Below are positions 8,242 through 43,268 of a stretch of DNA of 64,000 nucleotides, piece after piece; the stretch's first letter is position 1, and each line of letters starts with the position of its first letter. The translations under genes and the position numbers were made by a program. The stretch comes from a bacterium (lineage in GTDB: Bacteria; Bacillota; Clostridia; Lachnospirales; Lachnospiraceae), in assembly GCA_030535455.1 (NCBI GenBank), contig JAUNJY010000017.1, positions 1 through 64,000 on the forward strand, given 5' to 3'. A model generated the notes under the pieces. The model was given only the letters and a program-made list of their open reading frames with translations, was not told the origin of the DNA and did not search any database.

Positions 8242-9108
8242 TTAATTTGTATTGTTCATTGCAGCGCTTCGATGTGCAGTATCTTCATCATTATCTTTAT
8301 ATCTTTCATAAAACCAGTTTGGTATAGCTAAACATGATTTTCGATGATTGTAGATTTTACCTTGAATCTCTTGTAATTCATTCATTGTTTTCGTTGCTGA
8401 AGAATTTAACAGTTCATCACATTCCATTAAGTTCACTACATCATCATTAATCTGAACTACTATTTGAAATAACCACTGAACCATTGGCACAATAAATGCA
8501 AATCTATACAGAAGCATACACGTAGACTCATTTTTAATTACACCTAGTGCTAAAATAGCGACTGTTAAAACCCCAATGATAATAATACAAAATGTTTTAT
8601 AACGCTTTCGCAATGAAACATCCCAATGAAAATTCTCTTTTTGACATAGTAATATCCCCTTTTTCAATTCTACCAATCCTACTGGTGAGGTATACCAATC
8701 TATGAGTTTTTCTCTTTCTCCTGACTTCATATATAATTTTTTTGACTTTTCCATCACGCAATGAGTTACATCTCTCATTTTTCCAAATAATTTTGTATCC
8801 CATTGTATTTGATAAACATATATATCAAAATGTTGTTGAACTTCTGCTGCTAACTTTTTCTCATTTTTTACATAAGCACTTACTCCAAGTGCAATAAACA
8901 TACTAGTAATTGATGCTACATAAGACACTGCGCTTAAAGTCTCATTCTCAATTATCAACTGAACTACAGCCAACACTAATGGAATAAATACAGCAAATAA
9001 TACGCCAATTCCATTAACGCGTTTCACCTCATTATACAACTGCCTCTGTGCAGCCAATAGATTAATAGACCTTTCTTCATTTTGTCTTTCTGTTATACCA
9101 TTTTCCAT
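8242..9108 (-). CDS. S-4TM family predicted pore-forming CBASS effector
   Basis: 288 aa. It shows the S-4TM layout: a short polar N-terminus with a RSINLLAAQRQLYNEVKR helix, and two membrane helices (about 33 to 52 and 59 to 78). A long cytoplasmic helical part follows (about 80 to 165, with KLIDWYTSPVGLVELKKGI), then two more helices (about 172 to 215) and a charged C-terminus. S-4TM proteins are predicted membrane-disrupting effectors found next to nucleotide-signal synthases. It follows the CD-NTase by 12 bases in one operon with GAGGTGAATTA before the ATG, so a nucleotide-triggered membrane effector is the natural reading. Family call from memory of the pattern. Confidence 0.65.
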   Translation of the reverse strand: MENGITERQNEERSINLLAAQRQLYNEVKRVNGIGVLFAVFIPLVLAVVQLIIENETLSAVSYVASITSMFIALGVSAYVKNEKKLAAEVQQHFDIYVYQIQWDTKLFGKMRDVTHCVMEKSKKLYMKSGEREKLIDWYTSPVGLVELKKGILLCQKENFHWDVSLRKRYKTFCIIIIGVLTVAILALGVIKNESTCMLLYRFAFIVPMVQWLFQIVVQINDDVVNLMECDELLNSSATKTMNELQEIQGKIYNHRKSCLAIPNWFYERYKDNDEDTAHRSAAMNNTN

Positions 9109-9120
9109 TAATTCACCTCA

Positions 9121-10110
9121 TCACCCTTCTGTGTACTCGGGAAAGCTGTTTCCTAACACTTCTCCCCACTTCTTAATAGCCTCTTTTTGTTTACCTTCAT
9201 CCTCAAATTTTCTTGCTTCACATGCCTTACTATATGCATTAGTAAGAGCATCACTAATCTTGTTTCTATCTTCTGAACTAAAATTATTCAAATTTCCTTG
9301 AATTCCTTTTGGATCTTCTACATCATATTTTATTGCACTTGATAACTCATTCAATGTATTCTTAAACTCTATGTCAATCCACCAATTCTCTCCAACCTCT
9401 TTTTCGTCATATATATTAAGAATCATACATTCTAGAAGATAAGAACCAATAGTTAATGTTACTTTTCTCTTATTCCAGTACTTTACTAGACGGATAAGGT
9501 TTAATACGTTTCCATTATGCATTTGGTTTATATTACTAGTCCTATCATTATCAATCCGGGGATCTGTTTTTTTCCAATCACCTTTTCCATCTGGTATAAG
9601 GAAAAAATCTTTAGTTGTATAGAAGCAAGGTACAATATCAAAATTCCAAGTATATGACTTCATTTTTAATGTGGCAGCTTCTTGGTTTTTATGCATCTCA
9701 GCTTTGCTATAATCACTTAAATCCGAAAGTTTTGTAACAAATCTATTAATAACTTTTGTGGAATTTAGATGGTCGTTATCAACTGCTGTTAGCCCATTTG
9801 CTTTATCATCCTCGTTACCAATGATATAATAGCAATCCGTGCCTTCTGTATATGTACGAGAACCTTCAGCAAATATACAAAACATTAGATCGATATCGTC
9901 TAGTTCTCGAATTTTTGTCCTTCTTGCAAATGAACCAAATTTTAAATTTTTCTCTTTATAGATACAAAAAAAATCATCATCTCCACTAAATTCATTGATA
10001 TTACTGATGAGATTGTCTCTGCTAGTTCTAGCTTTTACAGTCTTACTCGAATCAAGATTTACCGTATCTTTCATAAACTCTTTAAAAGCATTATCTACAG
10101 TTGTTACCAT
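9121..10110 (-). CDS. CD-NTase (CBASS-type nucleotidyltransferase)
   Basis: 329 aa from ATG 10110, which has GGAGG eight bases upstream; an in-frame GTG at 10125 overlaps that site. Pol-beta-type nucleotidyltransferase motifs are visible: GS at residues 59 to 60 (KFGSFARRTK), the DxD metal pair in DDID (72 to 74), and a third acidic residue in FDIVP (Asp158). An OAS-like C-terminal helical part follows (NLIRLVKYWNKRK ... SYLLECMIL). Such enzymes make cyclic or linear oligonucleotide signals on phage infection. The partner is the S-4TM membrane protein downstream. The operon has its own vegetative promoter and a CIRCE operator. No Cap2/Cap3-type ancillary genes are present, so this would be a minimal (type I-like) CBASS. 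Confidence 0.75.
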   Translation of the reverse strand: MVTTVDNAFKEFMKDTVNLDSSKTVKARTSRDNLISNINEFSGDDDFFCIYKEKNLKFGSFARRTKIRELDDIDLMFCIFAEGSRTYTEGTDCYYIIGNEDDKANGLTAVDNDHLNSTKVINRFVTKLSDLSDYSKAEMHKNQEAATLKMKSYTWNFDIVPCFYTTKDFFLIPDGKGDWKKTDPRIDNDRTSNINQMHNGNVLNLIRLVKYWNKRKVTLTIGSYLLECMILNIYDEKEVGENWWIDIEFKNTLNELSSAIKYDVEDPKGIQGNLNNFSSEDRNKISDALTNAYSKACEARKFEDEGKQKEAIKKWGEVLGNSFPEYTEG

Positions 10111-10132
10111 CTTTTTTACCTCCACTTTTTTG

Positions 10133-10159
10133 TTAGCACTCTCAAATGCTGAGTGCTAA
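10133..10159 (-). promoter_or_regulatory. CIRCE operator (HrcA binding site) upstream of the CBASS operon
   Basis: Perfect TTAGCACTC, nine spacer bases, GAGTGCTAA: the exact canonical CIRCE inverted repeat bound by the heat-shock repressor HrcA, normally found before groES and hrcA operons. It lies 22 bases upstream of the CD-NTase ATG and directly after the -10 box, where a bound repressor would block initiation. Confidence 0.9.
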
Positions 10160-10163
10160 CAAA

Positions 10164-10192
10164 AATATACTCCATTAAGAATTAGTTGTCAA
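10164..10192 (-). promoter_or_regulatory. Sigma-A promoter of the CBASS operon
   Basis: Minus strand TTGACA, 17-bp spacer, TATATT. The expected start point falls inside the CIRCE repeat, the same layout as HrcA-controlled chaperone promoters. Confidence 0.85.
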
Positions 10193-19717: not shown

Positions 19718-21454
19718 CTATTTATCTGATGCATCTCTTTTCTTAAGTTCTTCTAACAATAATCCTCTATATACAGCAATATTATCCTTTTCCTTCTGAT
19801 AATCTTCTGTCTGTAGTAATCCTTTTTCCTTTGTAAACGATATTACCTTTCCTTTAATTTTTCTGTCATGAATTGAAGTAGTAGACAATATCAACTGTGA
19901 TTCAACAGGCTGATTCTTAGTTACGTAATCCCATATTGCATCAATCTTAGCCTCCGCTGGTTCTTGTTGGAATATTGCATCCATAACTATAGGTGCACAT
20001 ACGGTTTTAGAATGTTTTACGGCTGCTGAATATATTGCGAATATTTGCGCTAAAATTGCACATGGTAAGTCATTACCTCCACTTGAAAAACTTGGCTTAA
20101 ATTTTTTTAGATCTTTAGAGTCTATATCTGTTACATTCAAACTCTGTAGTGCAACACTTAATCTGGTCAAATAATCTTTCGTAATAAATGTACCTTTTCT
20201 TGAGATCGCTGATTGCCTCTTTGTTATGCTAGCTAACTGTTCATCAACATAAGTATATCTATTTCGAAGTTCTTTTTGTTCATTTTGCATATCTACTAAA
20301 ATACTCTTAGAGCCCTCTGCTACCACAACCTCTTGAAAAGTAACATTTTCTCTTTTTCGATTTAGTATTTCATTTATCTTTTCAATATAATCACTTGATT
20401 CCTTTAACACTTCTGATTGTTGTTGAATTTTCTTCTCTATTTTTTCTTTCTGTACAAAATAGTCCTGAATAACCTTTTCACATTGTTCAACTTCGGAATA
20501 TAAATGAAATTTATTCTCTACATTGTTCTGATGCACAGTTCCGCAAATCGGACATACAATTTCTTTTTCGGTTAATTCATTTTCTACAAAATCTGCATCA
20601 GCCAATAACTCATCATATACTAACTCGGCTGATGAATAGACTTCTTCCAGCTCTTTCATTTCATTGAAGCATTTAATCAATTCATCTTTAATTTCATTTT
20701 TCTTGACTAACTGTGCATTCAATTCATCTGTCAAACTTAATATGTCATCGGCAAAATCCTCTGTATTTAAATTTATATCAAGGTAATCTTTATACTTTTC
20801 TGTATGCTTTTTTATTACAGCCTCATAAGTTTTTAATTGTCTCTTATTATCTTTTTGTTCTCTATCATATTCTATCTTACTATCCAACAAATCATAGTAC
20901 TCTTTTGTTCTTACACCCATATGATATAACAGAATCTCTGATTTCCATGATCCTGAAAAAACATCACCAAAAGAATCCCATGATCCACTCCAGCCTTTAT
21001 CCTGGTCTATATAAAACGGCATAAATATTGCACCTGGATATGCATATACCGCATTTTCATCATCCTTTTTTATCGGCATCTTTAAATAAAACTCAAAAAA
21101 TTCCACATAAAACTTTTTGAGTTCTGAAATAGATGGGAAGAATTTTATTTCCTCACCATACTTAAGTAAAAATGAATCTCTATCTCTATATAGTTCATAT
21201 AAGTCTCCATTATATGTAAACGTTATAATAGTACTTATCTGTAATGAATTCCAGTTTGTTGTATACTTTTTTAATTTAGCACCCAGAGCATGGTATATTG
21301 ATTTCATTACAACTGATTTACCAGTTCTATTTATAGTATCACCCTCTGGATTATCACCTGTAATAACAGTGAGAGTATCATCAAATGTTATTGTTCTGGC
21401 TTCTTCATTTTTTTGTGATATTATTACAAGCTTTTTCAGAATTAATCTTTTCAA
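19718..21454 (-). CDS. Zinc-hook SMC/Rad50-like ATPase of a Lamassu/ABC-3C-like defence pair
   Basis: 578 aa. Walker A is in NRTGKS (about 42 to 47). Coiled-coil arms (about 190 to 290 and 315 to 420) flank a Rad50-type zinc hook CPIC (Cys301, Cys304). An ABC-signature-like FSSGGNDLP and Walker B APIVMDAIFQQEP follow near the C-terminus. SMC-like ATPases of this size pair with DUF4297 nucleases in Lamassu and the wider ABC-3C class, where they sense invading or replicating DNA and unleash the nuclease. The start is TTG at 21454 with AAGGAG eight bases upstream. It lies 87 bases after the nuclease gene. Confidence 0.7.
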   Translation of the reverse strand: MKRLILKKLVIISQKNEEARTITFDDTLTVITGDNPEGDTINRTGKSVVMKSIYHALGAKLKKYTTNWNSLQISTIITFTYNGDLYELYRDRDSFLLKYGEEIKFFPSISELKKFYVEFFEFYLKMPIKKDDENAVYAYPGAIFMPFYIDQDKGWSGSWDSFGDVFSGSWKSEILLYHMGVRTKEYYDLLDSKIEYDREQKDNKRQLKTYEAVIKKHTEKYKDYLDINLNTEDFADDILSLTDELNAQLVKKNEIKDELIKCFNEMKELEEVYSSAELVYDELLADADFVENELTEKEIVCPICGTVHQNNVENKFHLYSEVEQCEKVIQDYFVQKEKIEKKIQQQSEVLKESSDYIEKINEILNRKRENVTFQEVVVAEGSKSILVDMQNEQKELRNRYTYVDEQLASITKRQSAISRKGTFITKDYLTRLSVALQSLNVTDIDSKDLKKFKPSFSSGGNDLPCAILAQIFAIYSAAVKHSKTVCAPIVMDAIFQQEPAEAKIDAIWDYVTKNQPVESQLILSTTSIHDRKIKGKVISFTKEKGLLQTEDYQKEKDNIAVYRGLLLEELKKRDASDK

Positions 21455-21541
21455 TTTTCCCTCTCCTTAAATTTCTAATCACTTTCTTATATGCTATAAA
21501 TTTATTTTCTTCTCTCTTTTCCTCTATTGATCTAAGCTGTT

Positions 21542-22627
21542 TCAATCAAACATCTCCTTTACAATCATTGCATATAAATAGTACCTATTATAAATCAATG
21601 CCTCTGGCTCAATACTCAATTTATTATAGATATATTCCGTCCATTCTTTGCAATTATCGAAATCTTTTTCTCCCATTATGTTTTGAATTTTTTTAACGAT
21701 TTCTTGTAACCCGAGTGCCTCAATATTCATTCTTTCGATCTGATATTTTTTCCACTCTCTATGAATTTTATTAACTTCTAATGGTTTAAATCCATCTGTA
21801 ATTAGACTTAAATGAATCTGATTCCATAAGTCATCAGGCATCTCCACCTTCAACCTGCTAATCCATTGCAGAAATTCAGTTTTTGATATCGCTTTGCTTT
21901 TCATTAACTCTTCAACACATCCAGTTGATTTTTCAACATTATTTATTCTTCTAATTTCACCCAATATTGTATTGTATATTGAACGTGTTCTTTCAATTGT
22001 ACTAGGGATATTCATATCTTCAAGTTTTCTAATCATTCTCCCCATAACGGTATCATCATAGGATACTAAGTCAAGGTCTGCTACATCAAAATAAATTACA
22101 CTTAGACATTCGTCATTACAATTATTCTTCTTATTACAAGCTTTACACATATCAGCCTTTAACTTCTTGATATTAGTATCATTTATCTCATTCAAAGTAA
22201 TTTTACTTCTATTTTTACTTTCGGTATCGTCTTGGAACTTCCCAAAATCAAAACTTTTATTAGAGACTAAATGAATTCCCCTTGTATCATCTTCAAACTT
22301 AACAAATTCATCTATCATCTTTTGAATAATGGACATTTTTTCTGGATACTTACTCCCATTTTTAGTAATAAATGATGATGTAATATATCTACTGTCTTTT
22401 GCATCGGTCTTTATCTGAAAGAACTCTATATATTCTTCATTCTCAAGTCTGTTTAATACAATTACATCATCATGGAATTCCATAAACAATGCAAAATCTA
22501 AATTAGATTCTAATACCTTAAGCATATAATCAAATGCCCAAACTTGTTGAAATGTAAAACGGTTTGAAGAACGTGCTCCTGCATTTTCACGCTCCGGAAC
22601 ACTTAGTAGTTTTTTGGTTAAATCCAT
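21542..22627 (-). CDS. DUF4297 (Cap4-like) dsDNA nuclease, defence effector
   Basis: 361 aa from ATG 22627, preceded by GAGG and an A-rich spacer; an earlier in-frame ATG exists at 22669. The N-terminal 100 residues match the DUF4297/Cap4 restriction-like nuclease: NAGARSSNRFTFQQVWAFDYMLKVLE, then FALFMEFHDDVIVLN and EFFQIKTD carrying the acidic and QxK residues. A cysteine group (CKACNKKNNCNDEC, about 178 to 190) may bind zinc. The C-terminal half is helical and unrecognised, probably the contact to the SMC partner. It is first in a two-gene operon with the ATPase. Confidence 0.7.
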   Translation of the reverse strand: MDLTKKLLSVPERENAGARSSNRFTFQQVWAFDYMLKVLESNLDFALFMEFHDDVIVLNRLENEEYIEFFQIKTDAKDSRYITSSFITKNGSKYPEKMSIIQKMIDEFVKFEDDTRGIHLVSNKSFDFGKFQDDTESKNRSKITLNEINDTNIKKLKADMCKACNKKNNCNDECLSVIYFDVADLDLVSYDDTVMGRMIRKLEDMNIPSTIERTRSIYNTILGEIRRINNVEKSTGCVEELMKSKAISKTEFLQWISRLKVEMPDDLWNQIHLSLITDGFKPLEVNKIHREWKKYQIERMNIEALGLQEIVKKIQNIMGEKDFDNCKEWTEYIYNKLSIEPEALIYNRYYLYAMIVKEMFD

Positions 22628-22781
22628 CTTTTTCCTCTCACCTCCTGATAATCTACATTGTATCATCATCCCCTGTAGATTAAAAGCAGATAAATCTTCT
22701 TATATATACAATTTAAACGCAAAAGCATAGACATAATACATCTCCGCATTACTGTATTGTTTCTAATAACTTTATAAATAA

Positions 22782-37079: not shown

Positions 37080-38306
37080 ATGTCTATACTAAATCAACCA
37101 TTTCAAGGACAACTAGGTGATATACTTATTGAGAAACTAGATTCTAATTTTAAATCAATCACAATTTTTTCTGCTTTTGCAAAAAATAGTGGTGTATTAC
37201 GATTAAAGTCTGCTCTTGAAAAATTCAAGGAAAATGGGGGTAAGATCACCGCTTTTATCGGTATTGATCTTGATGGGACCTCTTATGAAGCACTATTAAA
37301 CCTATTTTCTCTATGTGATAATTTATATGTTATACATTCTGAAAATCCATCCACAACCTATCATAGTAAAATATATTTATTAGAGAATGATACATCCGCA
37401 TGGTGTGCAATTGGGTCAAATAACTTAACTGGTGGTGGGTTATGGACTAATTTTGAAAGTTGTTCATTGCTAGAATATGATTTATCTTCACAAAAAAGTG
37501 AACTTGATAATATTTATTCTGTAATTGATAAATATACAGATCCAAGTTATATATGCTCAACTCAGATTAGTTCAATTGATGACATCGACATATTACTCGA
37601 TGCAAATTATATATCAAAAGAAGTCACTCAAAAAATATCAACCATAAAGCGAAGACTTGATCAGACAGAACAACGAAAGAAAAATCGTTTATTCGGATCT
37701 GAGAAAATTTCCATACCTACAATGATTTCTTTTGAAAAGCGACGTAAACCATTTACTACACCTTCAGAACCCCCTGTAGACTTTACAATACGTCCCTCAA
37801 ATATACCTGCTTTTACAAATGAGCAGTTCTGGTTTGAAATGCGTAAATCAACAGGTGGCTCTCGTAATATTTTAGATTTATCAATGTTAGGGCAAATTGA
37901 GTCCGGCTCTGTTATAGGAACACCATATGAATATACTGATTCTACTCATATGTATGGTGGTGTAAAATTCTTTGAAATTGACCCAAACGAAACAAGCCGT
38001 GAGAAGAACATAACTATCAACTACCACGGAATAGATTACTATCCATCAACCATTAAGTTTACCCCTAATAATGGAAGTTGGCGTATTCAACTTAAGGGCG
38101 CTCCAAATGATGGAACAGACGAATTATCCAAATATGGAAATAAAGGAGATTTTGTTCATAAAATTCTTGTTTTTGAAAAAATTAATCCTGATTATTATGT
38201 CCTCTCCTTACTGGATGAAAGTGAACTGGAAAATATTAAATCCATAAGCCGTGTTTGGGGTAGAAATGGCAGTAACTCCTCTTCCAAAGCTTATGGCATG
38301 CTCTAA
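37080..38306 (+). CDS. PLD-family nuclease, probable restriction endonuclease
   Basis: 408 aa, the only plus-strand gene of the element. The N-terminal phospholipase-D-like nuclease domain has H95-x-K97 (TYHSKIYLLEND) followed by GSNNLTGGG (112 to 120), as in the BfiI/NgoFVII class of restriction enzymes. Only one HKD half is present, so it would act as a dimer. The C-terminal part (about 230 to 405) is probably the DNA-recognition domain. GGAGG precedes the ATG. It converges on two N6-methyltransferase genes and shares a two-way terminator with them, so I infer one restriction-modification cassette. Confidence 0.65.
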   Translation: MSILNQPFQGQLGDILIEKLDSNFKSITIFSAFAKNSGVLRLKSALEKFKENGGKITAFIGIDLDGTSYEALLNLFSLCDNLYVIHSENPSTTYHSKIYLLENDTSAWCAIGSNNLTGGGLWTNFESCSLLEYDLSSQKSELDNIYSVIDKYTDPSYICSTQISSIDDIDILLDANYISKEVTQKISTIKRRLDQTEQRKKNRLFGSEKISIPTMISFEKRRKPFTTPSEPPVDFTIRPSNIPAFTNEQFWFEMRKSTGGSRNILDLSMLGQIESGSVIGTPYEYTDSTHMYGGVKFFEIDPNETSREKNITINYHGIDYYPSTIKFTPNNGSWRIQLKGAPNDGTDELSKYGNKGDFVHKILVFEKINPDYYVLSLLDESELENIKSISRVWGRNGSNSSSKAYGML

Positions 38307-38329
38307 AACATATTAGTAATATCTAAAAG

Positions 38330-38366
38330 AGAAGTAGAAAAATGTTAGAACCATTTTTCTACTTCT
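38330..38366. terminator. Bidirectional terminator between PLD nuclease and methyltransferase
   Basis: A perfect 15-bp inverted repeat AGAAGTAGAAAAATG / CATTTTTCTACTTCT with a 7-base loop between the convergent 3' ends. It overlaps the last codons of the methyltransferase gene. Confidence 0.75.
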
Positions 38367-40597
38367 TCTACTGTATAGAACTTACCAAAAGTCTTTGCAA
38401 TTTTTATAAGTTCCGTCTTACCCATCCCATATAACATTGCTATCAGAATATCTATCTCCGCTATAATCTGCTTTCTTTCCTTACTTACATGAATTTCATA
38501 CCATTCAATTTCTCTAAAGGCGTCTCTTACTCTATCATCGTTCTTATATAAAGCATAAAGTCTTGAATTTATATGCTCATTTATAGAAGCATCAATTTCA
38601 CCAAAAACAATTCTTTTGGAAAAATCTTTGTCCTCTGGTACTGGAATCTGCTTTATAATAGTTTGTGTAAGATCCAGCCCTGCCATTTTTAAACGAACAA
38701 TATAATCAAAGACTATGGAATTAAATAGTGCCAAAATATGCATCATTTTTACCTTATCTTCTATTTGAAGTATTTGAATGGACTGACATGTTGGAATTAA
38801 TGGTAACATTGTAGCCAACATGGTTCTTCTATTCGTCGCAGAGGTCAAACTTCTCCATGTAATAATATAATCCTCTTTAAAGTTCTTTGATATTTTTCTC
38901 CAAATTTCCTCCTCTATATAATAGCGAGCCTCTGGATACTCTTGACCTTCAATATCTTCTATCTGTCGTGCTGTTGCTTTACTTTTATACTTTTCTGTTT
39001 CAGTCATTCCATTAAAAGTTGCATATTTCGCTGTATATAATTCTATAAATTTCCCTTCATAAATAGGTGCATATCCACTTTCTCTATGTGTAATAATGTG
39101 ATTTGAATGATTAGTCAAATGTACCAACCTGCCAAATTTACATTCCTCATATACATCGCCAAATATTTTATTGCTATTATATACATCTATAAGAAATTGT
39201 AGTTCTTCATTATTTTTTATATTAGGAATCATACCCGTATCTGGATTAATTAAATTAATAGTTTCATACGGTAATACAATTTTTTGTTTATCATAAAAGC
39301 CTGCATATTCATCCAAATCTAAAGCAAGTTTCATTGTGTCTTCATTATTAATTCTTAAGTATATAACAGAAAATTCTTCTCTTGAGTCAATATAAAAGAT
39401 TTTTTTTCGATTAGTAAACATATATAGTTCGTATAAATACTGCCGTTCAGTTATACTCTTCATAAATTCACTATAAACAGGCATCTTCACTAAAGAAGAT
39501 TTTACAATTAACCCTGAAATCCCCTTCTCACTTAGCATATTTATAGAGAATTCTGTAAATAGAGCATACGTATTCAATTCACCACAATTTGTATTCTTAA
39601 AATATAAATTCTTTTTTATATGTTTCTTGGCCAAATCATAATCAGTAAGAATAGATGTATAAAATTCTCTATTTTCTTGGGTAATATTCTTTAATAAATT
39701 AGTTCTATCAAGCTTTGATTCAATTTTTTCATTTACAACGTAATGTTGTAAAAACTTTTTCTCTTCGAATCTTATTTTTTCCCATGGTGGATTTCCCACA
39801 ACAATATCAAATTTTTCTAAGATACTGATGCCCATTTTATAATTGTAGAATTTACCCTCTGATGCTGTTTTGAATACTTCTAAAATATCAATTTTCTCAT
39901 TCTCACATAACAATGGATTACCTAATCTTATATTGATTAGATTCCCTCTATTTTTGCAACAACTAACTAGACGTGCTCTTGTAATCATTATTGCAATTGG
40001 ATCTACATCAACCCCATATAAAACAGTTTTAATATTTTTTTCCATGCAGTATTGATATGCCGCCACTAAGAATGCCCCACCTCCACACGAAAAATCTACG
40101 ACTCGTAATTCTTCAGTATTCTTTTCGCTGAAAGTCAAATAATCATCAATACTCTTTTTTACCACCTCATATGCAAAATCTTCTTGCGTGTAATATGAAC
40201 CTAATATGTCTCTACTATTTTTTCCTCCTGCGAAGACTATTCTGTTATTCTCTATCATATAGTCAACTGAAAGATACTCCTGATATATTTCATTCACATC
40301 GTATTTTTCTGTGTGCTTAACAATTTCAATAATGTCATTAACTAAAGAATTTACTCCAGGTAAATTAAATAAGAAATTTAAGATTTCTATATCTTCTAAT
40401 CCATTTTCTAAAGCACTTTCCTTAATACTTTCTAACGATTTCTCTATATCATTTAGTGTCACTACCAAAAATGCTATATAAGAAGAGTATAGATAATTCT
40501 GTCTTATACTTTTCCAACTATTCATGTCACTATAATCTGTCATGTATTCACAAATTATATTTCGTAATTTATTTATCATATTTTTGTATTTCTCCAT
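38345..40597 (-). CDS. N6-adenine DNA methyltransferase (gamma-class) B
   Basis: 750 aa. An N-terminal helical region is followed by motif I DFSCGGGAFLVAAY (168 to 181) and the catalytic motif IV NPPW (269 to 272, VVGNPPWEKIRF). The long C-terminal half resembles the target-recognition part of HsdM/type IIG-like enzymes (ATARQIEDIEGQEYPEARYYI, then ITWRSLTSATNRRTMLATMLP, the usual late motif). No nuclease motif is visible. It overlaps methyltransferase A by 29 bases. ATG 40579 is an alternative start. Confidence 0.75.
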   Translation of the reverse strand: MEKYKNMINKLRNIICEYMTDYSDMNSWKSIRQNYLYSSYIAFLVVTLNDIEKSLESIKESALENGLEDIEILNFLFNLPGVNSLVNDIIEIVKHTEKYDVNEIYQEYLSVDYMIENNRIVFAGGKNSRDILGSYYTQEDFAYEVVKKSIDDYLTFSEKNTEELRVVDFSCGGGAFLVAAYQYCMEKNIKTVLYGVDVDPIAIMITRARLVSCCKNRGNLINIRLGNPLLCENEKIDILEVFKTASEGKFYNYKMGISILEKFDIVVGNPPWEKIRFEEKKFLQHYVVNEKIESKLDRTNLLKNITQENREFYTSILTDYDLAKKHIKKNLYFKNTNCGELNTYALFTEFSINMLSEKGISGLIVKSSLVKMPVYSEFMKSITERQYLYELYMFTNRKKIFYIDSREEFSVIYLRINNEDTMKLALDLDEYAGFYDKQKIVLPYETINLINPDTGMIPNIKNNEELQFLIDVYNSNKIFGDVYEECKFGRLVHLTNHSNHIITHRESGYAPIYEGKFIELYTAKYATFNGMTETEKYKSKATARQIEDIEGQEYPEARYYIEEEIWRKISKNFKEDYIITWRSLTSATNRRTMLATMLPLIPTCQSIQILQIEDKVKMMHILALFNSIVFDYIVRLKMAGLDLTQTIIKQIPVPEDKDFSKRIVFGEIDASINEHINSRLYALYKNDDRVRDAFREIEWYEIHVSKERKQIIAEIDILIAMLYGMGKTELIKIAKTFGKFYTVEEVEKWF

Positions 40598-43268
40598 CCT
40601 TAATTAGTAAAAACGGAATTCCTTTAAAAATACCCGTATGAATCTTAATAAACTTTTCAATAATCCAGTTTTCTGAATCAATACTTAATCCAAATCGCTT
40701 ATTAAGTTCATCTACTGCTTCTTCAATTTTAACCCTATCTCTTAATACACCCGTATTAACATTGTAATTAAATAATCTCAAAATTGTATTATGAAGAAGT
40801 AAATCTCCATATTTTGATAATGTTTTTTCCATAATAAATGGATTTTCAGTAACTCTCTTGACAATCAGCTCAGGACTAACATGTAAATCTTTCGAAATAA
40901 ACTCTAAAATCCCATCACTTCCTAGTGAATTTTTTGATGCTCTTGTTCTCTTGAGCATACATGCCATATCGGTAAGTTTATCTATATATTGGTCAAGTTT
41001 TCTTAAATCAATATCTTGACTACCTTTTATTTTATAGGCACATGTTCCAACTTGCACATCCAATTGTGTTTTTTCTTCCTTTGTCAAATCATATTCTGCT
41101 AAAATATACTCATCACATTGATTTTCTATTTCTAGTTTTAATAACTCATTTGTAAGATCACTTCTAAAAATTTCCCAAGCTTGCTTTTCCACAGTTCCGT
41201 TTAGTTTTTCTAAACTTTCTGCAGAATACTCTACATTATTAGGTCTATACTGTAGAAAACTTTTTTTCAAATCAACGCATAACTTGGCATTTCTCTCCAA
41301 TATAACCGATGTGTAAATAGATTCTCTAATAGGTATTTGTCCTATATACCCTGCTGCAATAGTCAATTTCGGCGATATTGTCCTTACATAATTTGCAGCT
41401 AAACGAGAATTTAAAAAAGCCAAATGTGCATACTCGCTCCCATTGATAACTCGAATCCCTGGTCCTGATGCAATAAATATTTGATTTTTCAACAATACCC
41501 GTACATTTAATCCAGCTGTACCGGTATCGCTAAAAACCATCTGTGTCATATTAAAATACTTTGCATTTCTAAGTGCAGAACCTTTCTGTGCTTTTATATA
41601 CTCTCCATCATTTCCCCATTTTACTACACTATCATTTAATCCTTCCCATCTGCAATAGCCCCCACCATTACTAACAAGTATCCATTCCTTTTCATTAAAA
41701 TGCTCCCAAAAATATGCCACTAATTCTTTTGCATTACCCGTTGATGTTCCTTGCATAGGAACAGCAACCTCTTTATATAGCTCTTTACTTTCTTCAATCT
41801 TTTTCCTAGCGCTCTTTTTAGCGAAATCAAAACCATTGATTCCATCTATATCATTTTGTGATATCATGATGTATTCTTTATGGTTACCTTCAAGAATATT
41901 TATTTTATCTGATAGAGATTCTGTCGTAAGATTTAGAACTCTTATTTTGTTATTTAGTATCTTTCCATTAATTCTTTTTTCGAAAATCAATAACGAAACA
42001 TTGGATTTCTCACCACTCAAATCATAAAATGCCCCCGAACCAAGATTGGCTATATTGTGAAAAATATATTCACTTACAAGTTTAGCCCTTATTTTAGAAA
42101 AAGTCTTTAGGTGCATCCATGCATTTTGTGAAACTATGCCACATTTCCCATTAGGAGCTAACATTTCATAAATTGCTTCAAAAAAAGAAACACACGTATC
42201 GCAATTTGATAATGGATAATTTGCTTTCAGAAATCTTTTCTGTTCATCAAGCATCCCTTTAATTGTTGCAAACGGTGGATTTGTAAGAATCATTTCAGCA
42301 TTCCCCAATGCTATATTCTGTTTAACAAGCTCGCCCGTGATAATATTTTTAACTAATCTATTATCTTTTGCCAATGAACCTTTAACCCTGTCTTTTTCAA
42401 ACGAACAAAATATATTTGGGGTAATCTTATCCCATATATCAAAAGATACTTTACATTTACGTCGGTTTAATATTGATATAGCTCTTATTCTAATATTGAC
42501 TACAGCTATTTTTGTAATTTCTTTATCAATATCATATCCATATAATTGCTTAGCCTTTTCAATAACATACTCCTCTATATTTACGATCGCGGAATCACCA
42601 CACAATGATTCATAACATTCTACTAAAAAATTTCCACCACCTGAGCATGGATCAAGAATTTTTCTTGCATTAGCTATATCTCCAATATTATCAACAAGAT
42701 ATTGGATCATATACTTTTCCGTGAAGAACTGAGTCTGACTATAGTCATTTGGTGCAATTATTTTATTTAAATACTGATACGCCCATGAAACTATATTGTC
42801 AATCTCCGAATTATCTGCATAAGAATACAAATATTCTTCAACCAATGATACTATGGCATTATCCAGAATAAATTTTTCCTCTTCTCCCTTAATATCTTTA
42901 TAAATCCTTTTATATATTGTATATCTATCTTCAGAATCGTGTAAATATTGTTTACACAACGTACCTGCTAAAATTGTCAATACATATGCTTTCTTGGATT
43001 CTTCTGATAGCCCTATTTCATCACATTTCTTATATAATACTTTTAAAAGTTTTTTCAGATCACGTCTTACAGCCGAAAAAACTTTTTGTTCTTCTTTTAC
43101 AGGATTTTTTGTTCTTCCATCGACAGGCCTTTCTGTATCCTCTGGAACCACCCACATATTTCCTATCATCTTTGCTCCACTAATTCGACCTTCACGACAT
43201 AACACTTGAATCCGTCTCTTACTAATATTCCATATATTTGATACATCCTGTACTGAAAGATATTCCAT
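40569..43268 (-). CDS. N6-adenine DNA methyltransferase (gamma-class) A with N-terminal HTH
   Basis: 899 aa. Residues 1 to 42 form a MerR/excisionase-like helix-turn-helix (YLSVQDVSNIWNISKRRIQVLCREGRISGAKMIGNMWVVPED). A helical region is followed by motif I DPCSGGGNFLVECY (about 206) and motif IV NPPF (330 to 333). A target-recognition-type C-terminal part follows. Such HTH-methylase fusions occur in phase- or context-regulated restriction systems. It is first of a two-gene operon with its own promoter. Together with B it could methylate the two strands of an asymmetric site. Confidence 0.75.
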   Translation of the reverse strand: MEYLSVQDVSNIWNISKRRIQVLCREGRISGAKMIGNMWVVPEDTERPVDGRTKNPVKEEQKVFSAVRRDLKKLLKVLYKKCDEIGLSEESKKAYVLTILAGTLCKQYLHDSEDRYTIYKRIYKDIKGEEEKFILDNAIVSLVEEYLYSYADNSEIDNIVSWAYQYLNKIIAPNDYSQTQFFTEKYMIQYLVDNIGDIANARKILDPCSGGGNFLVECYESLCGDSAIVNIEEYVIEKAKQLYGYDIDKEITKIAVVNIRIRAISILNRRKCKVSFDIWDKITPNIFCSFEKDRVKGSLAKDNRLVKNIITGELVKQNIALGNAEMILTNPPFATIKGMLDEQKRFLKANYPLSNCDTCVSFFEAIYEMLAPNGKCGIVSQNAWMHLKTFSKIRAKLVSEYIFHNIANLGSGAFYDLSGEKSNVSLLIFEKRINGKILNNKIRVLNLTTESLSDKINILEGNHKEYIMISQNDIDGINGFDFAKKSARKKIEESKELYKEVAVPMQGTSTGNAKELVAYFWEHFNEKEWILVSNGGGYCRWEGLNDSVVKWGNDGEYIKAQKGSALRNAKYFNMTQMVFSDTGTAGLNVRVLLKNQIFIASGPGIRVINGSEYAHLAFLNSRLAANYVRTISPKLTIAAGYIGQIPIRESIYTSVILERNAKLCVDLKKSFLQYRPNNVEYSAESLEKLNGTVEKQAWEIFRSDLTNELLKLEIENQCDEYILAEYDLTKEEKTQLDVQVGTCAYKIKGSQDIDLRKLDQYIDKLTDMACMLKRTRASKNSLGSDGILEFISKDLHVSPELIVKRVTENPFIMEKTLSKYGDLLLHNTILRLFNYNVNTGVLRDRVKIEEAVDELNKRFGLSIDSENWIIEKFIKIHTGIFKGIPFLLIKDGEIQKYDK

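What the first reader, a model, noticed from the sequence alone, without database searches (positions are those of the whole stretch)
8242..10192. CBASS-type operon under a perfect CIRCE/HrcA heat-shock operator
The CD-NTase/S-4TM operon has TTGACA-17-TATATT followed at once by TTAGCACTC-N9-GAGTGCTAA, the exact HrcA operator, with no chaperone gene nearby. HrcA repression depends on free GroEL; unfolded protein load relieves it. Many phages burden GroEL during capsid folding. I infer a two-step alarm: proteotoxic stress or infection induces the defence genes, then the nucleotide signal fires the membrane effector. I am not aware of a described CBASS controlled by CIRCE.
Basis: partly seen in the sequence, partly recalled or inferred. 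Interest (0 to 1): 0.92.

Follow-up and report, generated by a model that had tools for sequence, protein, structure and literature searches.

The report
Heat-shock operator on phage-defence operon
A two-gene bacterial immune system related to human cGAS sits behind the exact DNA switch that normally controls heat-shock chaperones, and at least one unrelated immune operon of the same kind carries that switch too, which suggests that protein-folding stress may arm immunity in these bacteria.

Summary
A perfect CIRCE (HrcA operator) lies at 10133-10159, between a consensus promoter and a type I CBASS operon (CD-NTase plus S-4TM effector) inside an ICE. It is not a chance hybrid: among 88 loci with related CD-NTases, 5 carry CIRCE (0-2 mismatches) at the same promoter position and 83 have at least 6 mismatches. 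In the clade of four that holds the window's cyclase, operator arms are 94% identical, spacer and flanks far less. An unrelated, complete type II CBASS (G111) has a 1-mismatch CIRCE 20 bp before its start; a third CD-NTase lineage (G331) has a degenerate one (provisional).

HrcA was found in all 12 hosts tested; in the window's own MAG it is not found, but a contig ends inside dnaK, so hrcA probably lies in an assembly gap. Of 48 other CIRCE sites examined in those hosts, 44 precede chaperone or protease genes. No paper in the searched library holds both HrcA and CBASS.

Most likely host HrcA represses these operons and proteotoxic stress derepresses them. That phage infection is the trigger is inferred, and two phage studies whose passages I read do not support it. 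Novelty: a new regulatory variant of CBASS.

The parts
10187..10192 (-). -35 box TTGACA of the CBASS promoter
   Evidence: read directly
10164..10169 (-). -10 box TATATT, 17 bp spacing
   Evidence: read directly
10133..10159 (-). perfect CIRCE (HrcA operator), 4 nt downstream of the -10 box
   Evidence: arms conserved in related operons
9121..10125 (-). CD-NTase (oligonucleotide cyclase); likely ATG start at 10110-10108
   Evidence: PF18144; PADLOC PDLC00802; G58, S59, D71, D73, D157 invariant in alignment A1 of six sequences
8242..9108 (-). S-4TM membrane effector
   Evidence: PF18159 E 9e-68; PADLOC 4TM PDLC00715
10685..13015 (-). context: VirD4/TraG coupling protein of the ICE, upstream neighbour
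   Evidence: PF02534
7813..8070 (-). context: small membrane protein, downstream neighbour in the conjugation module
   Evidence: ORF; PF20535 match below the cut-off

Best explanation
A mobile type I CBASS operon whose promoter is held by the host's heat-shock repressor HrcA. While GroEL is free, HrcA sits on CIRCE at the start of transcription and keeps the cyclase and membrane effector low. When unfolded proteins occupy GroEL, HrcA loses activity and the operon is transcribed together with groESL, htpG, hsp20 and lon. CBASS proteins accumulate, and the cyclase still needs its own infection cue to make nucleotide and fire the effector. Shown by sequence: operator, promoter geometry, conservation, recurrence, and HrcA in the hosts of relatives. 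Inferred: HrcA binding, induction, and any benefit against phage.
For: Perfect site in the right promoter position. CIRCE at 0-2 mismatches in 5 of 88 related loci, the other 83 at 6 or more in up to 500 bp upstream. None of 5220 shuffled upstream sequences (60 sets of 87) is below 4 mismatches; the reversed motif never below 6. All four rows of the window's clade have it; their arms are 94% identical, spacer 24%, flanks 41-43%, aligned without gaps. The label needs at least three changes on the tree, gains or losses. L026 and its sister L027 share the operon, but the best local alignment of their upstream DNA starts at the right end of L026's CIRCE, i.e. the promoters differ. Unrelated type II CBASS with a 1-mismatch CIRCE in a host whose other five sites precede hrcA, groESL, htpG, hsp20 and a ClpB-like gene. 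Third lineage with a 3-mismatch site after TTGACT. HrcA in 12 of 12 hosts and 3 of 3 other genomes of the genus. Own hrcA probably in an assembly gap. HrcA repression depends on GroELS (PMC3842655).
Against: No binding or expression data. CIRCE is absent from most related operons: 83 of 88 loci, and the five homologs (one of which, L017, appears to be L073 again). Close relatives without it exist (L063 69%, broken; L027 68%; L028/L029 65%; Fusobacterium plasmid 63%). The host's own hrcA was not seen. Two published phage studies did not show induction of groE or HrcA targets.
Confidence: 0.82

Rival explanations
1. HrcA does bind, but CIRCE is only a convenient host repressor site that keeps a toxic effector low; induction by stress is a side effect without a role in immunity (a narrower reading of the same control).
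For: Abortive pathways must be tightly regulated (PMC13373217 introduction). Two phage studies show no groE/HrcA-regulon induction.
Against: Many repressor sites could do this, yet the same stress operator stands before at least two unrelated CBASS cyclases. Derepression by stress is inherent in HrcA control.
Confidence: 0.3
2. CIRCE acts mainly as a stem-loop in the 5' leader of the mRNA (stability or translation), not as an operator.
For: It lies in the expected transcribed leader, and an inverted repeat can form a hairpin (not folded here).
Against: The arms keep the exact letters (94% identity in the clade) rather than only complementarity, and the spacer varies freely. HrcA is present in the 12 hosts tested.
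Confidence: 0.07
3. Chance hybrid promoter, or promoter captured from a host chaperone gene by an insertion, without function.
For: Cargo of mobile elements can land beside host promoters; L026 and L027 differ just upstream of the operon.
Against: Local alignment of the window promoter with six host CIRCE promoters covers little beyond CIRCE. Six S-4TM operons in different surroundings share it. Arm conservation and shuffle controls.
Confidence: 0.03

Closest known systems
CBASS type I with S-4TM effector
   Same: cyclase and 4TM effector in one two-gene operon, here on a mobile element
   Different: expression placed under the host class I heat-shock operator; no regulator gene of its own
HrcA/CIRCE class I heat-shock regulon
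   Same: exact consensus operator in a promoter region, as described for groE and dnaK operons in PMC3842655 (passages)
   Different: the target is an immune operon on a mobile element, not a chaperone
CapH/CapP, CapW/BrxR and CapK/CapS control of CBASS and other immune operons
   Same: transcriptional repression of an immune operon, relieved by a stress signal (PMC13373217, abstract and introduction)
   Different: those regulators are encoded beside the operon and answer to DNA damage; here the repressor would be a host chromosomal protein and the stress proteotoxic
Type II CBASS (cyclase, E1-E2, JAB, 2TM effector) of genome G111
   Same: also carries CIRCE directly upstream of the cyclase
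   Different: cyclase without significant BLAST similarity to the window's, different effector and accessory genes; 1 mismatch in the operator

Membership tests
CBASS type I | CD-NTase with intact active-site motif | tested here: met
   PF18144 and PDLC00802; G58, S59, D71, D73 and D157 invariant in six aligned sequences, the window's included; the roles of these residues are recalled
CBASS type I | effector gene in the same operon, no Cap2/Cap3 | tested here: met
   S-4TM ORF starts 12 bp downstream; the neighbours are conjugation-module genes
CBASS type I | nucleotide synthesis and phage protection | not testable with these tools
   no experiment
HrcA/CIRCE regulon | TTAGCACTC-N9-GAGTGCTAA operator | tested here: met
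   0 mismatches
HrcA/CIRCE regulon | operator in the start region of a sigma-A-type promoter | tested here: met
   TTGACA-17-TATATT, operator 4 nt later, read by eye; no transcript start known
HrcA/CIRCE regulon | host encodes HrcA | tested here: inconclusive
   none in the own MAG, but a contig ends inside dnaK, so hrcA probably lies in a gap; present in 3 of 3 other genomes of the genus and 12 of 12 hosts of relatives
HrcA/CIRCE regulon | HrcA binding and heat induction | not testable with these tools
   needs EMSA, ChIP or RNA data
CapH/CapP, CapW, CapK/CapS regulated CBASS | regulator gene beside the operon | tested here: not met
   between the operon and the VirD4 gene only a 98-aa TTG-start ORF on the other strand overlaps, and the downstream neighbour is a conjugation-module ORF

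The most novel reading that the evidence does not exclude
Protein-folding stress is a general arming signal for cGAS-like immunity in HrcA-bearing Bacillota. Mobile CBASS operons of several types have separately put themselves under HrcA/CIRCE, so that chaperonin titration during infection raises cyclase and effector levels before the nucleotide signal fires.
Probability: 0.4. Interest if true: 0.92.

Novelty: new variant of a known kind. Interest (0 to 1): 0.82.

Why it matters
The CBASS transcriptional regulators named in the introduction I read are encoded next to the operon and answer to DNA damage. Here an immune system appears to be wired into the core heat-shock regulon of its host by a 27-bp site alone, in at least two unrelated CBASS lineages. 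It would link proteostasis to immunity, predicts temperature- and chaperonin-dependent phage resistance, and can be tested directly with HrcA and a reporter.

Tried and rejected
Copying of the promoter from a host chaperone gene: local alignment of the window promoter with six host CIRCE promoters gave little beyond CIRCE itself. True loss of hrcA in the host: thought unlikely, since a contig ends inside dnaK and the next strong match of the G001 region starts near the start of another contig, beyond hrcA. CIRCE census of viral contigs: 104 stretches; by my reading of translations many downstream ORFs are groES-, hsp20- or htpG-like and none looked like CBASS, but I did not annotate them all; two unknown proteins gave no PADLOC match. 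Viral relatives of the G111 cyclase by a single-protein scan: none. Three Bacillota plasmid relatives of the G111 cyclase (L347-L349): no CIRCE at up to 4 mismatches. Rfam search of the window at gathering thresholds: nothing. No structure prediction was run.

Rows dropped or not examined: one search used two short peptide patterns, found 108 relatives and kept 80; the 28 weaker were not examined. The tree used 86 of 90 sequences; L063, L066, L110 and L111 were left out (open frame under 250 aa from the match start). One search used 87 of 88 upstream regions. Some loci have little upstream DNA (for example L035, L110). Of 52 non-CBASS CIRCE sites in the 12 hosts, 48 were examined; of the other 4, one lies beside an hrcA hit.

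Full report
Observation. The window has a perfect 27-bp CIRCE at 10133-10159, its only such site at up to 3 mismatches, with 0.04 expected from shuffles. On the minus strand the order is TTGACA, 17 bp, TATATT, 4 nt, CIRCE, GGAGG, ATG. The genes are a CD-NTase (PF18144 E 7e-14; PADLOC cyclase PDLC00802 E 2.3e-132) and an S-4TM effector (PF18159 E 9e-68; PADLOC 4TM). The nearest solved CD-NTases by sequence are 6p8u and 6p82 (E about 2e-14). The pair lies among conjugation genes of an ICE: VirD4-type coupling protein, secretion ATPase and TraG-like ATPase.

Does the host have HrcA? A Pfam search found no HrcA in the window's 126-contig MAG (93.6% complete) but found it in 3 of 3 other genomes of the genus. 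In the single-contig relative G001 the genes run hrcA, grpE, dnaK, dnaJ (read from translations). An 18-kb query of that region matches the MAG's contig C99 up to its last base, where the query position is inside dnaK; the next strong match is contig C88 from base 145, at a query position beyond hrcA; five weaker matches lie on other contigs. hrcA therefore probably falls into an assembly gap. The MAG has 8 CIRCE sites at up to 3 mismatches, against 1 for the reversed pattern. One is the CBASS site; six precede groESL (twice), htpG, hsp20 (twice) and lon; the one with 3 mismatches looks like noise (gene names are my reading of the translations, lon also by Pfam).

Is the operator conserved? 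An alignment of six CD-NTases was used to scan 84,980 species genomes (108 relatives, best 80 kept) and viral contigs (8). Of these 88 loci, 5 carry a CIRCE that starts 53-87 bp before the matched start: L034, L025 and L030 with 0 mismatches, L024 and L026 with 2; the other 83 have 6 or more in up to 500 bp upstream. Five further homologs (two plasmids, a phage contig, two genomes of which L017 appears to be L073 again) have none. Over up to 200 bp upstream of 87 loci, 60 sets of dinucleotide shuffles (5220 sequences) never gave fewer than 4 mismatches, and the reversed motif never fewer than 6. In the six CIRCE-bearing S-4TM operons a sigma-A-like promoter precedes the site, read by eye. In the supported clade of four that holds the window's cyclase, all four have CIRCE; their arms are 94% identical, the spacer 24%, the 45 bp upstream 43% and the 25 bp downstream 41%. 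The flanks were compared without gaps, so their identity is a low estimate. This is the footprint expected of a protein operator under selection.

How was it acquired? On a maximum-likelihood tree of 86 CD-NTases the CIRCE label needs at least three changes, which may be gains or losses. The bearers are a clade of four Clostridia (window, L024, L025, L034), L026, and Paenibacillus silagei L030. L026 and its sister L027 share the operon, but the best local alignment of their upstream DNA starts at the right end of L026's CIRCE, so one of them changed promoters. L027 and the Fusobacterium plasmid have AAA_21 and RloB genes directly upstream in the same direction, so there CBASS probably rides on another defence operon's promoter. 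The neighbours of the CIRCE-bearing operons differ from those in the window; only distant matches to other window genes were seen (ParA/ParB-like in L034, one ORF in L024, a glycosyltransferase in L026). The two genes with their operator look like the travelling unit.

A second and third lineage. SMODS surveys of 391 genomes of the class and 397 of the family, overlapping draws, gave 39 distinct loci besides the window, some below the family cut-off and one (L341) apparently L073 again. L318 in G111 (99% complete) has a 1-mismatch CIRCE 20 bp before the start of an unrelated CD-NTase. The operon is a complete type II CBASS: cyclase PDLC00795, E1-E2 PDLC00831, JAB PDLC00896, 2TM effector PDLC00672. 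G111 has 6 CIRCE sites; the other five precede hrcA, groESL, htpG, hsp20 and a ClpB-like gene. L339 in G331, on a 3.3-kb contig, has a 3-mismatch site with an intact right arm, after TTGACT, before another cyclase (PDLC00774) followed by an E2-like gene; this one is provisional. The other 37 have 5 or more mismatches. By BLAST the window cyclase has no significant similarity to either of these two, which are 25% identical to each other.

Is CBASS unusual in the HrcA regulon? HrcA is present in 12 of 12 hosts of CIRCE-positive and CIRCE-negative relatives. They hold 57 CIRCE sites at up to 2 mismatches, 5 of them the CBASS sites. Of the 52 others, 48 were examined: 40 lie before hrcA, groES, htpG, hsp20 or lon by BLAST (31; eight more and L258, whose groES lies 360 bp away), 4 before a ClpB-type gene by Pfam, 3 lie near contig ends and are unassigned, and 1 (2 mismatches) precedes a LysR-type gene. 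No other defence gene was seen among them.

Mechanism. HrcA repression depends on available GroELS and is relieved by non-native proteins; the regulon also answers to acid, bile and salt stress (PMC3842655, passages). By that logic the CBASS operon is repressed in unstressed cells and induced with the chaperones. Whether phage infection does this is open. In Lactococcus infected by sk1, dnaK and grpE rose but groES/groEL2 were repressed by 5 minutes (PMC10986495, passages). In the Campylobacter phage carrier state the HrcA and HspR regulons were repressed (PMC4534711, passages). A broader reading, that CBASS is armed by any proteotoxic stress, fits the sequence evidence equally well.

Literature. 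Full-text searches of 5.39 million open papers gave 0 papers with both HrcA and CBASS, HrcA and CD-NTase, or HrcA and 'anti-phage defence'. A search for two of CIRCE, HrcA and CBASS gave 97, of which I saw 20, none with CBASS. The CBASS transcription regulators I found named are CapH/CapP, CapW and CapK/CapS, DNA-damage responsive and locally encoded (PMC13373217, abstract and introduction). Subscription papers and preprints are not in the library, so absence there is not shown.

Verdict. A real, selected and recurrent HrcA operator in front of CBASS. HrcA control is very likely; stress induction follows from it; the immune benefit and the phage trigger remain to be shown.

Noticed in passing
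window 19718-22669 (-): Lamassu-like pair on the same ICE: LmuB (PDLC00249, E 6.9e-127) and LmuA (PDLC00238, E 1.6e-63); no CIRCE there.
   Followed up: partly
window 37080-43268: Weakly nuclease-like ORF and two large methylases (Type IIG- and PglX-like PADLOC matches), so the ICE looks like a defence island.
   Followed up: partly
L007:6734-6760, L010:7541-7567 and several hsp20/clpB sites: A frequent 1-mismatch CIRCE form, TTAGCACTCnnnnnTTGACAGTGCTAA, holds a -35-like TTGACA inside the operator, so HrcA would cover the -35 rather than the start site.
   Followed up: no
L127:7174-7200, L149:4003-4029, L130, L173, L177, L194, L148 (viral contigs): Exact CIRCE on viral contigs before small unknown proteins, some with two or three copies in a row (L148: three at 49-bp spacing); others before phage hsp20- or groES-like genes.
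   Followed up: partly
L027:2531-4492, L021:3953-5937: CIRCE-less relatives carry AAA_21 and RloB genes directly upstream of CBASS in the same direction: a possible composite defence operon.
   Followed up: partly
L026:3-1068: An AAA ATPase gene (AbiLi/PtuA-like PADLOC matches) points away from CBASS; the CIRCE between them could control both.
   Followed up: no
L063:6001-6963: The CD-NTase reading frame is interrupted in this Hungatella locus, which also lacks CIRCE.
   Followed up: no
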